A DNA stretch of 64,000 bases from Artemia franciscana (taxonomy: Eukaryota; Arthropoda; Branchiopoda; Anostraca; Artemiidae). The position numbers and the translations under genes were made by a program. Positions 41,801 to 50,800 of the stretch are shown in pieces (the first letter of the stretch is position 1; every line of letters begins with the position of its first letter). The notes beneath the pieces are model-generated. The model did not search any database, was not told the DNA's origin, and saw only the letters and a list, made by a program, of their open reading frames with translations. The stretch spans positions 40,173,577-40,237,576 of the forward strand of contig NC_088873.1 in the NCBI RefSeq assembly GCF_032884065.1. The letters are read 5' to 3'.

Positions 41801-44800
41801 AGTAAAGGTTTAGTGAAATTTTGCAGTGATGATATTAAGAAGTATGACTGTGATATGGGAAGTAACAAACAGAAAGCTGTTCAGTTGTCAAGGATTCTTG
41901 TTTGTCTTGAGAATGCCATACATAAAGGTGAGAATACGAAATTTAAATTTTTATTGCTGCCAGAGTTATGATGAACAAAGAGAAAAGAAGAATAAAAAGA
42001 AAGTAATTATGTGGCTCATATTTGGAACTGAAAAAAAAATGGAACTGAAAAGCCAAAACTCCAAAAGAATGTTGATCGCTCGTGGACATGTAAAAATGTA
42101 CGAGAATATAAAAAAAACAATTAGTTCTATTAAGGGGATTCGATACCTTAAAACTATTTTACGAGTCTCAGCGTTGGCTGACCGTCTAAAATTGTAACAT
42201 CACCTCAGGGAACTCCTAAAGTATTTTTGGTAAAGTTTGATAGTGGATCTTGATGTATCAACAATTTGAAAATCAATCAATTAATTTATTTTTTTATTTA
42301 AATTAAACCGGGAAAAGAATTACAGAGCCATAGACCCTCACAAAGGCTGTTTGGCCTTTTAGAGTGGGACATTAGACATTACATTGAATAATAGCAATAA
42401 TAATAGATAATAGCACACTTATATTAATTGCATTAAATTACAGCATATAAAAAAGTACAGTACAAAAAGTACCGCAGCATCTATCAACTTTTCGTAGACT
42501 TTAAACAAGCTTTCGATCTCATATAAAGATAAAGGTCTATAGCACATCCTACTTCCCTTTGGCATCCCATCGAACTTGATCTCTCTGATTAAAGACATGT
42601 ATGAAAAGTTCAAAAGCCGTGTCGTGACTGAGGAAGGACTTGTCGAAAGTAGTGCCGATCCTCTGCTTTTAAACAAATCGACACCCACTACTCCTTTCTT
42701 CCTCCGATAACTTAAGTTGAATGGCGATTCTCTCAAGACGCAGGTGTTATAAAACTTCTTCGAGACGCAGGTGTTTGTTATGTCACAGGGAATGTCTTCT
42801 AAGAGATGCAGGTGCATGTTACGTAATAGGGAGAGTTTACTTTGGTTGTTACGTAATAGGGCGTGATTGTTATATCATAGTTTTTTTTATTGCTACGTAT
42901 TAGGAAATGTTTTTTAAGACATTTTAAGACGTTTTTAAGACATTTTTTCCAAGACGTTTTTCAAGATTTATTTAGTTCTTACGTAATGGAGAATGTCTAC
43001 CAGTGTTAAGGACGACGCATTCTAACGTGACCTGTTTCTTCAGTGCCCGTGGGGGATCCCCGCTTGTAGCTGAGGAGGACACAAACTTGGGTGTTACGTA
43101 ATGACGATATACACGCGGTATGTTGCATAATACTTTAATAGATTTCTTTCTCTTTCAAGGCGTTTTTCTCAGGGAATTTTCATTAACTAAAGATTTTACG
43201 TCCACATTAGGATTTGAAAGGGATTCCCTTTCAAAGGGACAGTGCCCTAGACAGCTTGACTTTGATCGCCTTTTATTATTTTGATTCAGCTAATATTTCC
43301 TACAAAATAGTCTATTGCACGTAAGGAAAATTCCCTGTTCGCGCATACTAGAATGATTAAATGGTTCGCATATTTCCAACATTTTCTACATTAGAGCAAC
43401 GGCGTCCCAATCCTATTGATTTTCGCTCCATTAGATGCAGCTGCCTTTTACGTTCTATTAATGTTCTAACACGACCTAGTCAGGTTAAGTTACATAGCAG
43501 ATGTTACCAAGCATTGGTTTTAGATATTTCCTTACGTAAATAATTACGTATTAACGTTCCATCCTGGATCAATAAATCTAAAGGATACGAACTTTTCTAC
43601 ATATAAATTTCATTAATAAAAACAAATTTACAAGCATTATTAAAACACAGATAAAAGCAGTTAAAAGACAACAAACGATAAACAAAACATGAAAAAAACT
43701 TATAAAGGATGAAATATAAGCAAAAAGAACCATGAATTAAAGAAGGGTAGAGGTCCTAGCAACCAATTCCAGAGGGGAGGATTGGTATTAGAGGTAAATT
43801 TAAGCCCTATTAAGAGCTATATCTGAGAGGTTTTACTGAAAACGTTGCGTTTCTTGGAGCCAAGACTATGCACCTCCCCCGGTTGAAAAGCACACATTTG
43901 AATAACATTTTCTCGTCAAATTTCACACAATCTCGTTGGAGGTCAATTTTAGCCACATTAAGATATTTTTGAGGGCTTTTAATGGAAATTCCTCGTTTCT
44001 TTGACTGAGCGTTAAATTTCACTCCCTCTTCAGTCGAAAAAATTTCTTTTAACACCTTTTAGCTTAACTTCAAGCTGTAGCGTATGTAAGTCCAAACAAT
44101 TCACACCCCTGTGACAATATGTGGGTAGCCCACCCTATCAACAAATTCCTGAAGGGGAGTATTGCTATTAGAGATAATTTTAAACCATATTAAGAGTTAT
44201 TTCTGAGGGACGAATCCCTAATTTCTTTGACTTGATGTTAGGTTAGGTTAGATTTGTTAGATTTCAGTCACCCCACCGCCGAAAAATTTGTTTAACATCT
44301 CCACCTTAACTTTAAGCTTTAGAACATGATAGTCCATGTAATTCACGCTACTGTGGCAATATGTGGCTACCTCATGGCGCCCCAATGATGCATATTATCA
44401 TTCCTAAGACAGTTTCCAGATATTTTCATAATAAAAACATAATTTAATTCCATTGATCCATGTTTTCGTAAGCCAACCTTCTGTGATACACTGAGTCAAT
44501 TTACGCCCCCGTGTCACACTATGGCTGGCCCCTTGGCATCCCCTTCTTACTCCTAAGACATTTTTCAGATATTTTCCTGTTAAAAATCACGCATTTAATC
44601 TATTGATTCATGTTCTTTTGCAAGTCAACGCTCCATGATACACCATTTCAATTCACGCCACCGTGTCACACTACGAGTGGTCCAATGTCAACCGCTCATC
44701 ATCCCTAAGACATTTTGCAAATATTTTCATGATAAAAATATAATTTTAATCCAGTTGTTCATGTTTTTCACCAGCCAACCCTCCGATACACCACGTCAAT

Positions 44801-47800: not shown

Positions 47801-50800
47801 CCAATGCTACGTAACATCAGCTTTGTAACTTAACCTGTCTAGGTTGCGTTAGAATATTAATAGAATGTAACAGGCAACTATAAAAATCTAATAAAGCAAA
47901 GTCAATAGGATTGGGACGCTTTTGCTCTCATGTGGAAATGGTTGGAAACATTGAATCATTTAGTCATTTTATTATGCTTGAACAGGGGATTCTCCTTGCG
48001 TGCAATAGGTTATCATGTAGAATGTATTAGCTGAATCAAAATATTAAAAAAGCGTTCTTAGTCCTGGTGTCTAGGTTGCAGTTCTATTGAGGAGAATCCC
48101 TTTCGAATCCTAATGTGGACATAAAATCTTTAGTTAGTAAAGGTTTCCGTAGAAAAACGCATTGAAAGAATAACAAATCTCATAAAGTATTATTTGACAT
48201 CCCGCGTTTCCATCATCATTAAGTAACACCCACTTGTGTGTCCTCCTCAGTTACAAGCGGGGATCCCCCACGGACCCTGAAGAAACTTTTCACGTTAGGA
48301 TGCGTCATTCTTAACACTGGTAAACTTTCCCCATTACGTAAGAACTAAAGAAATCTTGAAAAACGTCTTGGAAAGAAACGTCTGTACGTGTCTTGAAACA
48401 CGTCTTGACGAAACTGATTGAAGAAAAAATGTTTTAAAAACATCTTGAAGTGTCTTGAAAAATATCTTGAAGAAAACATGTTTTGAAATGTCATCAAACG
48501 TCTTGAAAAACACCTTGAAAAAAACTGTCTGTAAAAACTCCCCCACTTGATTTATGGACTCTAAGATTCCCTAGTACGTAACAATAAAAAAAAACTATGA
48601 TATAACAACGAAAACCTAGTACGTAACAACCGAAGTAAACTCTCCCTATTAGGCAACCAGTACCTGCATCTCTTAGAAAGCATTCCCTATGACGTAACAA
48701 AAACCTGTATCTCGAAGAAGTTTAATAACACCTGTGTCTTGAGGGAATCGTCGGTCAGCTTAAATCATTCAATGAAGAAAGGAGTAGTAGGTATAGGTTC
48801 ATTTAAAAGCAGAGGGCTGTCACTGCTGTCGAAAGCTTCAAAACATCTACTGGAGTGCTACAAGGTTGCTTACTATCATCGGAGCTGTTCAATCTCTTCC
48901 TACATGCTGCCCTCTCACTCACAGACAACCCGTCTGGCGCCCTTGTCGGAGGAGTATTGATAGATAAACTAGCATATGTCGATGACATAGACTTAGTAGC
49001 CGAGTCCCTTCAAGACCTTAAATCTCAGGCTAACAGCGTTCACTCGTCTACCTTCTTCGAGATGGCCATCAACACCTCAAAAACGAAAGCTATGCGCTGC
49101 TCACGCAAGCCGATTCACAGGTAAATCTCGCCTTCAGCTTGGTGGAGATGTTACTGAGTGGGTAGAAGACTGCATCTACCTAGGGAGCTTACTTACTTCT
49201 GGTAACAACCAACTCAAAGACATCAAGAGACGCCTGACACTTGTGAACTCCAGTTTTAATGCCCTGATGCCCATCTGGAGGAATAAGAATTTATCAACAA
49301 TTCTCAAAACGAGACTTTTCTACTCCCTCATTATTCTGATTGCCATCTATGCCTACGAGTCCCGGAGGCATAAAACAAACGATCAGCGTCACCTAGCTGC
49401 CTTTGAACCAAGTCTCCAATTCCAAGCTTTTCCATAATCTGAAAGTCAAACTGACAATACTGGATAAAATAAAACTACAGCAACTCAAATGGCTAGGATA
49501 TGCTCAACGCATGGGTAGCACTCGTCTTCCAAAGATAGCCATCGATGGGTGAGTACACGGTTCTCGCCCCAGAGGTCGCTTACGAAGAGTTGGAAAGAAA
49601 ACTTTTCACCTATAACCTGCCACAACTCCTCGCCTGGCCGACAACAGAAGCACCTACAGGAGGTATATCAATCAACTGGTTAATGAAGAGGTCCCAAAAT
49701 GACCTTAGAGGACGGACAGGACTTAAGACAAGTCAGTCATTAAGCATTAAATTAAGCACTAACTACATTAAATAATAGCACCAACAGCCAACAAGTTGAA
49801 AAGGGAAGATAGAGGAAAAAAAGAGAAGGGAGGAGAGAAGGCGGACGAGAGGCTAGTTTAAGTTAAAGAACATATATAATCTCTTAATATTGTTGACCAT
49901 GGCGCTGCCTATTCAACAATACAGCATTAAAAATACAACAAATATACAACATAAATATATATAATAAATATACAACACAATTTTACAACATAAATAGTAT
50001 GCATCCTGTGCCGGCAAGACTTTCAATCAAGGCGGGTATCATAACAGGAATTTCTCCTGAAGATTTTGAGTTACTCAAATGATACCTCCTTTGTGCTGAT
50101 TTTAATGGTTTCACAGCTGTTATGCTGTAATATTTTTAGGGACTACTCTTTCATAGAATTTCAAAAGAAAATTCTGCTCCATTTGATAGGAAGATAAAAT
50201 CAACACTTACTAATTATGCAAGTTTCATTAAATCTAAATAGCTCTTTCTCGGGCAAAAAAATGTGAAGAAATTTAATCGTTTTGCTAAGATCTCCTTGAA
50301 ATTAGGTGTTGGGTTTTAGTTTATTGTCGTTTATTCGGATTTCTTATCAAAGCTCTACAAGTTGTGGCAAGATTGCCCAATCAAATGCAAATAGTTTGGC
50401 CACACAAACTAAAAAAAAGTTATAACGGACAGATAGGGTGATCCTTTAAGGTATTTAATATCATTAAGAACATAAGGAAGTCCATAAGCATAAGCATAAA
50501 CATAAAGCATAAGTTTTTTCTGAAATCTCTATAATTGAGAAGGATGGGCATTAGTGGCTATTTATGACAACCTAATTTATGATTATTATGAAAAATGGCA
50601 CTTATGACAAATTCCATTATGACAAATGACAACATGTACGATTGTGAGCGTTAACTTTACTTCGACTAGGCTCGAATCAGCCGAAAATAGAATGAATTGA
50701 CTGGGGGGGCTAAATTTCTGCAGAATCTGTTTCATTTCGTGGCTTTGAAAAAAAGATTCTTGTATAGAGTTTGTGTAGGCTAAGACGTATAAATTGAGGA

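What the first reader, a model, noticed from the sequence alone, without database searches (positions are those of the whole stretch)
42641..48835. A 6.2-kb foldback transposon with repetitive arms and a 9-bp target duplication, inside a LINE, inside an intron
The two arms together make up almost the whole element and meet at an inverted array near 46045. The target duplication TGTCGAAAG is exact, and removing the element restores the LINE frame across the junction, so it is a genuine insertion and not an assembly inversion. No gene is recognisable inside. Long repetitive inverted arms plus 9-bp duplications recall Drosophila FB and some MULEs, but the termini TAGTGCC and GCAGTGA do not let me assign a family. 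It may be an undescribed foldback family.
Basis: partly seen in the sequence, partly recalled or inferred. Interest (0 to 1): 0.85.

Follow-up and report, generated by a model that had tools for sequence, protein, structure and literature searches.

The report
Foldback element with Maverick-type ends
A 6.2-kb, almost fully palindromic piece of mobile DNA sits inside an animal gene's intron; its ends and insertion scar look like those of virus-like Maverick transposons rather than of classical foldback transposons, and the same genome also holds Mavericks that have themselves folded into inverted-arm forms.

Summary
The foldback is real: 42648-48827, two arms (81.4% identical over 2382 aligned columns), inserted in a LINE reading frame in an intron of a gene with Cys-rich-FGFR repeats. 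A second copy at the same LINE site, 0.54 Mb away, is a segmental duplicate. Family end patterns occur about 150 times in the 1.27-Gb genome.

The family terminus is AGTAGTG...CACTACT, and over 21 two-ended copies the target duplication is 6 bp (84 of 126 positions match; other lengths near background), not 9. The window's is GTCGAA. (AGT)2//(ACT)2 ends with 6-bp duplications are published for Mavericks (Polintons).

The genome holds gene-bearing Mavericks whose terminus also starts AGTAGT. One (C14, 14.3 kb) is a palindrome of a Maverick's left part with a loop of only tens of bases; another has inverted arms of about 3 kb.

Best explanation: a non-autonomous foldback integrated by Maverick-type machinery, perhaps born by snap-back replication. 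Not shown: any similarity between the family's arms and the sampled Mavericks beyond the terminal hexamer. Of 44 polymerase and 18 MULE hits, none lies within 25 kb of a listed family end.

The parts
42648..48827 (.). Foldback element, 6180 bp, starting AGTAGTG and ending CACTGCT
   Evidence: family terminus alignment of 24 ends, TSD tests, coordinates
42642..42647 (.).
48828..48833 (.).
42648..46045 (+). Left arm, 3.4 kb (inner limit approximate)
46046..48827 (-). Right arm, 2.8 kb, inverted relative to the left arm (inner limit approximate)
42777..43107 (+). Six copies (<=3 mismatches) of GTTACGTAATAGGGA in the left arm; candidate protein-binding subterminal repeats
   Evidence: 11 of 11 window matches are in the element, 1.41 expected in the window
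48328..48698 (-). Five copies of the same motif in the right arm, mirrored orientation
44397..45140 (+). 149-bp x 5 tandem array, present in the left arm only apart from half a unit at 46787-46858 (-)
44476..45450 (+). Left-arm block without counterpart in the right arm
45814..46393 (.). Centre: 21-bp TTCTTACAAAATACAAAATAC-like arrays in inverted orientation meeting at about 46045
47428..47535 (.). (AT)54 microsatellite in the right arm only
42543..42641 (+). LINE open frame, left of the insertion (start approximate)
48834..49124 (+). LINE open frame, right of the insertion (end approximate)
   Evidence: RVT_1 in 2 of 12 frame pieces of 48836-64000, not localised
40615..40734 (+). Nearest localised PF00839 (Cys-rich FGFR) exon match upstream
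   Evidence: a weaker match at 41684-41968 by comparison with the downstream exon
55667..55828 (+). PF00839 exon match downstream; the element lies in the intron between

Best explanation
The element is one old copy of a large family of non-autonomous foldback elements with Maverick/Polinton-type ends. A retrovirus-like Maverick integrase, supplied in trans, most likely recognised the (AGT)2//(ACT)2 ends and joined the linear element to a 6-bp staggered cut (GTCGAA) in a LINE that already lay in the intron. The repeated GTTACGTAATAGGGA sites in the outer 0.5 kb of each arm are candidate binding sites for that machinery. The foldback form most likely arose when protein-primed copying of a Maverick-like linear DNA snapped back on its own new strand, giving a molecule with the same end at both termini and little or no loop. 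Shown: foldback, insertion, 6-bp duplication, (AGT)2 family terminus, Mavericks with an AGTAGT terminus in the same genome, and two Mavericks there with long inverted arms, one of them palindromic but for a central loop of tens of bases. Inferred: use of the Maverick integrase and polymerase, the role of the motif, and the snap-back step.
For: TSD length: 12 two-ended copies, identity peaks only at 6 (49 of 72; 43 of 66 without the window; lengths 2-5 and 7-15 give 0.23-0.45; 0 of 20000 permutations; unshifted block best of 625 offsets, 43 against 30 for the next). Nine further copies, terminus fixed by the pattern: 35 of 54 at 6 bp against 0.15-0.36 at the other lengths from 3 to 12 (2 of 20000 permutations). 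Terminus AGTAGTG in the alignment of 24 ends and 155 genome sites of AGTAGTGATGCCTCNCTGCTTTTAAA, control 0. Published vertebrate Maverick ends: commonest motif (AGT)2//(ACT)2, 6-bp TSD, repeated end motif linked to protein-primed 'jumping-back' (PMC8097293 passages). Mavericks in this genome: 44 PF03175 matches, 0 of 14 control genomes; C8 locus with PF04665 ATPase and PF00665 integrase; terminus AGTAGTATAGGCCC 7 bp outside the homology boundary between C14 and C8; 50 genome matches of that terminus, control 0, with pairs bracketing polymerase hits at C583, C991, C14 and C6. Inverted-arm Mavericks: C14 (middle 1-6391 against itself inverted, 97.2%; outer arms 95.2-97.8%; unpaired centre of roughly 40-60 bases); C3:51.99 Mb arms 96.8-97.5%, left end AGTAGTATAGGCCC beside (AT)n.
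Against: The arms of the window element show no match to the Maverick pieces read (L044-L050, L069: 0 rows in 16 comparisons with low complexity masked; unmasked, only AT repeats were listed); the two terminus types share little beyond AGTAGT. No Maverick gene or remnant in the element. 0 of 44 polymerase hits lie within 25 kb of 140 or 100 listed family ends. Eight of 21 copies show only 1-3 of 6 duplication positions matching. The window's right end reads AGCAGT, not AGTAGT, and the C8 Maverick's own left end is degraded. The predicted right end of the C3 Maverick was not at the predicted place. Among 40 scored places of the polymerase segment only 4, in two loci that I examined, belong to inverted-arm Mavericks.
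Confidence: 0.6

Rival explanations
1. A foldback of another cut-and-paste DNA transposon superfamily with 6-bp duplications; the AGTAGT terminus is a coincidence and the Mavericks of the genome are unrelated.
For: No sequence similarity between family arms and the gene-bearing Mavericks read, beyond the hexamer; no polymerase near listed family ends.
Against: A given terminal hexamer has a chance of about 1 in 4096, and the duplication length agrees as well; the published Maverick signature is this pair.
Confidence: 0.27
2. A Foldback/Mutator-like (MULE) element, as the first reader leaned to: 9-bp duplications, MULE transposase in trans.
For: Anatomy (long, internally repetitive arms) resembles Tm1 and Tetris; MULE domains occur in the genome (18 matches; the same model also matches in 3 of 14 control genomes); the window by itself shows an exact 9-bp repeat.
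Against: Length scan over 21 copies: at 9 bp 30 of 108 and 21 of 81 positions match, background level; none of 18 MULE hits within 25 kb of 140 or 100 listed ends.
Confidence: 0.07
3. Maverick-type ends, but the foldback form arose by recombination between terminal repeats and tandem-array expansion, not by snap-back replication.
For: Inner arms are modular tandem arrays that differ among copies: 149-bp (window), about 138-bp (L011, L012, x20), 21-bp (window, x23); several copies keep an unpaired middle.
Against: The C14 Maverick is palindromic through single-copy genes to within tens of bases of its centre, which array expansion does not give.
Confidence: 0.3
4. Assembly artefact (inverted chimera).
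For: Palindromes are a known artefact of long-read assembly (recalled).
Against: 18.6% divergence between arms, second copy of the locus with the same arms, 6-bp duplications in the family.
Confidence: 0.01

Closest known systems
Maverick/Polinton (Polintovirus) elements
   Same: Terminal (AGT)2//(ACT)2 motif, 6-bp target duplication, long terminal inverted repeats; gene-bearing Mavericks in the same genome have the same terminal hexamer, and some places (e.g. C12, C904, C991) also carry further copies of the subterminal sequence at 140-bp steps at both ends.
   Different: No polymerase, integrase, ATPase or capsid gene; 6.2 kb against 10-14 kb for the end pairs; arms not similar to the sampled Mavericks; almost completely palindromic.
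Tm1 (Mutator/Foldback, Meloidogyne; PMC3169594, passages)
   Same: Long composite arms with tandem repeats, unlike outermost bases at the two ends, non-coding copies.
   Different: Tm1 has mostly 9-bp duplications, other terminal motifs and a Phantom-type MULE transposase.
Tetris (Drosophila virilis foldback; PMC4079207, passages and one section)
   Same: Outer flanking domain, tandem-repeat domain whose number of repeats differs between copies, no transposase found.
   Different: 8-10-bp duplications, about 220-bp repeats, shorter arms (up to 1735 bp).
Galileo (P superfamily foldback-like; PMC3688188, passages)
   Same: Repeated protein-binding sites inside long arms, shown there by footprinting and EMSA; suggested here only by motif repetition.
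   Different: P-type transposase with a THAP domain; Galileo copies with coding remnants are known.

Membership tests
Maverick/Polinton | 6-bp target site duplication | tested here: met
   84 of 126 positions over 21 two-ended copies match at length 6 (49/72, 35/54); window 6 of 6
Maverick/Polinton | terminal (AGT)2//(ACT)2 motif | tested here: met
   Family alignment and pattern scan; window left AGTAGTG exact, right AGCAGTG one mismatch
Maverick/Polinton | long terminal inverted repeats | tested here: met
Maverick/Polinton | genes for protein-primed PolB, retroviral-like integrase, packaging ATPase, capsid proteins | tested here: not met
   0 Pfam families in six frames of the element: at most a non-autonomous derivative, so it is not filed as a Maverick proper
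Maverick/Polinton | arms homologous to the terminal repeats of a gene-bearing Maverick | tested here: not met
   0 rows in 16 masked comparisons with L044-L050 and L069; unmasked only AT repeats listed; other Maverick lineages of the genome not sampled
FB / Mutator-like (MULE) | 9-bp (8-10) target duplication | tested here: not met
   30 of 108 and 21 of 81 positions match at length 9
FB / Mutator-like (MULE) | MULE transposase in a related autonomous copy | tested here: inconclusive
   18 PF10551 matches in the genome, none within 25 kb of the listed ends; the listings show only part of the ends
FB / Mutator-like (MULE) | long internally repetitive inverted arms | tested here: met
   shared by several superfamilies, so not diagnostic
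Galileo / P superfamily | THAP-type P transposase in a related copy | not tested
   no search made

The most novel reading that the evidence does not exclude
The foldback elements of this genome descend from snap-back genomes of Mavericks: hairpin-like by-products of protein-primed replication that keep two good ends, lose the genes, are integrated by intact Mavericks in trans and have spread to hundreds or more of copies, the DNA-transposon counterpart of defective interfering viruses. The C14 Maverick palindrome, which stops within 15-75 bases of the integrase core and yet is inserted, would be an early stage, and the window element a late, gene-free stage.
Probability: 0.3. Interest if true: 0.85.

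Novelty: new variant of a known kind. Interest (0 to 1): 0.64.

Why it matters
In the papers I saw, foldback elements are assigned to Mutator-like and P superfamilies; a Maverick-type foldback would add a third and very different origin, in which the palindrome follows naturally from virus-like, protein-primed replication. It would give an explanation of how foldbacks with hardly any loop form, and would mean that Mavericks have small parasitic derivatives that spread with them. The window also shows how one insertion can mislead: a 6-bp duplication looked like an exact 9-bp one because one element base on one side and two on the other happened to agree with the target.

Tried and rejected
MULE/FB by the 9-bp duplication: rejected by the length scan. 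Assembly inversion: rejected. Copy 2 (C11:39.67 Mb, 13.6 kb) as an autonomous version: rejected; it is the same insertion in a segmental duplicate with later insertions, one of them with reverse-transcriptase-like ORFs (my reading). The 15.8-kb copy at C3:33.80 Mb as an autonomous version: rejected for the 6 kb read; it carries ORFs that resemble a nested Helitron (my reading, no family search) and no Maverick gene that I recognised (the other 9.8 kb not read). A hAT-like gene in L016 (6689-9284) seems to lie outside the element (my reading). Exact long patterns from the arms in viral contigs and genome contigs gave 0 matches. Rfam and tRNA scans of the window gave 0. Organism not identified; no taxonomy call was made. 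One search for snap-back replication of protein-primed genomes listed 2 papers, neither read. The adenain-like protease that I read in the C8 Maverick got no Pfam or PDB match and is not used as evidence. Left out of the TSD count: L013 and L018, whose right ends were unclear, and copy 2, which is not independent. Kept in it: L019, though its arms show no inverted match; the C1 copy, whose left end is degraded; and the C4:49.45 Mb pair (23 kb), which may not be one element.
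Full report
Observation. The region 42.6-48.8 kb is a foldback element. Direct comparison gives inverted pairs over nearly the whole length; an alignment of the arms has 2382 aligned columns, 1939 identical (81.4%; 255 transitions, 188 transversions), and 5251 of 6181 bases lie in an inverted match. The arms meet near 46045 in oppositely oriented 21-bp arrays; the exact centre cannot be fixed in such arrays, but no loop longer than tens of bases is apparent. 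The arms are unequal: the left is 3.4 kb, the right 2.8 kb, mainly because a 149-bp x 5 array and about 250 bp next to it (44476-45450) are missing on the right, while (AT)54 is present only on the right. No Pfam family is found in any of six frames.

Setting. Leaving out the element and one duplication copy joins two halves of a LINE open frame. The reverse transcriptase family RVT_1 is found in 2 of the 12 frame pieces of 48836-64000, not localised further. Matches to PF00839 (Cys-rich FGFR repeat) on the + strand at about 37053-37208, 40615-40734 and 55667-55828 (a third matching frame piece of 21301-42640 was not localised) place the insertion in an intron of what I recall as a GLG1/MG-160-type gene. 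The window is G000:C11:40173577-40237576 of a 1.27-Gb assembly. A second copy with the same flanks at the same LINE position lies at C11:39673702-39687296, 0.54 Mb away. The two loci align from window 39179 (the limit of what I fetched) to 50075 (where the match stops inside the fetched stretch) at 86-97%, so this is a segmental duplication of the locus. The arms of copy 2 differ from each other by 17-25% in two blocks, far more than the two copies differ from each other (3-7% in the main blocks), so most of the arm divergence is older than the duplication. This also rules out an assembly chimera.

Family. The terminal 120 bp had 171 first-look candidates, 40 scored; a 169-bp family end had 2026 candidates, 40 scored. 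A subterminal 39-mer with up to 3 mismatches occurs 150 times, and the terminal 26-mer 155 times, each with 0 matches of the reversed control (only the first hundred or so places of each are listed).

Target duplication. I fixed the terminus by this alignment and asked, for each possible length, how often the flanks match. In 12 two-ended copies the fraction is 0.68 at 6 bp (49 of 72; 43 of 66 without the window) and 0.23-0.45 at all other lengths from 2 to 15; 0 of 20000 re-pairings of left and right flanks reached the observed sum, and the unshifted block was the best of 625 offsets (43 against 30 for the next; mean 19.2). Nine more copies found by the terminal pattern gave 35 of 54 (0.65) at 6 bp and 0.15-0.36 at 3-5 and 7-12 bp, 2 of 20000 re-pairings. 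Perfect duplications are GTCGAA (window), TACCAA, GTCTTT and ATCGTA (4 of 21 copies); 8 of 21 copies match at only 1-3 positions, as expected if they are old or rearranged. Copy 2 has GTCGAA/GTCGAG (not counted).

What carries such ends. Published vertebrate Mavericks have 6-bp duplications and end motifs of which the commonest is (AGT)2//(ACT)2, and the repeated end motif is linked to the jumping-back step of protein-primed replication (PMC8097293, passages seen). This genome has 44 matches to protein-primed polymerase PF03175 (154 candidates, 91 scored), with 0 of 14 control genomes. The C8:26.44 Mb locus has, besides the polymerase, a Pox_A32-type ATPase (PF04665) and an integrase core (PF00665). 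Homology between this locus and C14:18.49 Mb starts 7 bp inside AGTAGTATAGGCCC at C14:18488410; the C8 copy itself has lost the AGTAGT. That 28-base terminus occurs 50 times with up to 3 mismatches, control 0, and pairs of it bracket polymerase hits at C583, C991, C14 and C6. So gene-bearing Mavericks here do have an AGTAGT terminus. Further copies of the subterminal sequence follow at 140-bp steps, at both ends in several places.

Inverted-arm Mavericks. The C14 element (18488410-18502695) carries two polymerase genes in inverted arms. The outer arms are 95.2-97.8% identical, and the middle 6.4 kb align with their own reverse complement from end to end at 97.2%, with an unpaired centre of roughly 40-60 bases. 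Each arm corresponds to the left part of the C8 Maverick up to about L048:3000-3060, some 15-75 bp before the integrase core match (L048:3075-3323). It is thus a near-complete palindrome made from one end of a Maverick, without an integrase core of its own, and it sits in an AT microsatellite. At C3:51.99 Mb a second Maverick has inverted arms of about 3 kb (96.8-97.5%) around a single-copy middle of 3.75 kb; its left end reads AGTAGTATAGGCCC beside (AT)n, but its right end was not where predicted. Of 40 scored places of a polymerase segment (45 candidates), converging pairs within 20 kb occur at C14, at C3:51.99 Mb and at C3:17.72-17.73 Mb (the last not examined). Most of the scored places are therefore not in such pairs.

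Mechanism. I think the window family is a non-autonomous derivative with Maverick-type ends, integrated by a Maverick integrase in trans. The palindrome would come from snap-back copying during protein-primed replication, which duplicates one end and leaves at most a short loop, as in C14; adenovirus-like systems are my recalled precedent, and one search found nothing that I used. In the window all 11 matches (up to 3 mismatches) to GTTACGTAATAGGGA lie in the element, 6 in the left arm and 5 mirrored in the right, against 1.41 expected in the window; 13 of 18 other family ends have at least one within 600 bp (34 in all), with none in the 290-bp outside flanks and none for the reversed motif. 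By analogy with Galileo, where repeated sites in long arms bind the transposase (PMC3688188, passages), these may be binding sites; that is inference.

What does not fit. The arms of the family do not match the Mavericks I could read (0 rows in 16 masked comparisons; unmasked, only AT repeats in the capped listings). No polymerase hit (0 of 44) and no MULE hit (0 of 18, where the same model also matched in 3 of 14 control genomes) lies within 25 kb of 140 ends typed from the listings or of 100. The link thus rests on the terminal motif and the duplication length. An unrelated superfamily with the same two features is not excluded.

Novelty. Foldback elements in the papers I saw are attributed to Mutator-like or P-type transposases (PMC3169594, PMC4079207, PMC3688188, passages). 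Searches for foldback, palindromic or non-autonomous Mavericks/Polintons showed no such description: one search listed 2 papers, one search listed 3, one search listed 15 of 143, seen as listings; in two of the last that hold 'foldback' (PMC6431247, PMC8504770, passages) the word concerns other elements. The library is open-access only and Repbase was not available.

Noticed in passing
window 39179-50075: This stretch, with at least one PF00839 exon match of the host gene, is duplicated 0.54 Mb away on the same chromosome (C11:39.67 Mb), at 86-97% identity.
   Followed up: partly
window 54707-54869 and 54976-55138: A second, short inverted repeat: 163-nt arms, 95% complementary, 106 nt apart.
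   Followed up: no
window 25229-26204, 54042-54795, 17287-17729, 57747-57887: Tandem duplications of 489, 386, 235 and 70 bp, 98-100% matching.
   Followed up: no
window 19502-20119 (-): A 205-aa open frame that looks hAT/ZBED-like to me; Pfam gave 0 families.
   Followed up: partly
L043 (G000:C3:33795880-33801880): The 15.8-kb family copy, with a perfect 6-bp duplication TACCAA, contains open frames resembling a Helitron replicase (my reading) and a 208-bp tandem duplication.
   Followed up: partly
G000:C103 about 2.077-2.089 Mb: Two Maverick ends 8 bp apart in opposite directions, with polymerase segments on either side: apparently two adjoining Mavericks.
   Followed up: no
G000:C13:37.406-37.432 Mb: Four Maverick polymerase segments in the same orientation within 26 kb, perhaps a tandem array.
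   Followed up: no
L016 6689-9284: Three consecutive open frames that look like one broken hAT transposase gene (my reading), a few kb from a family end.
   Followed up: no
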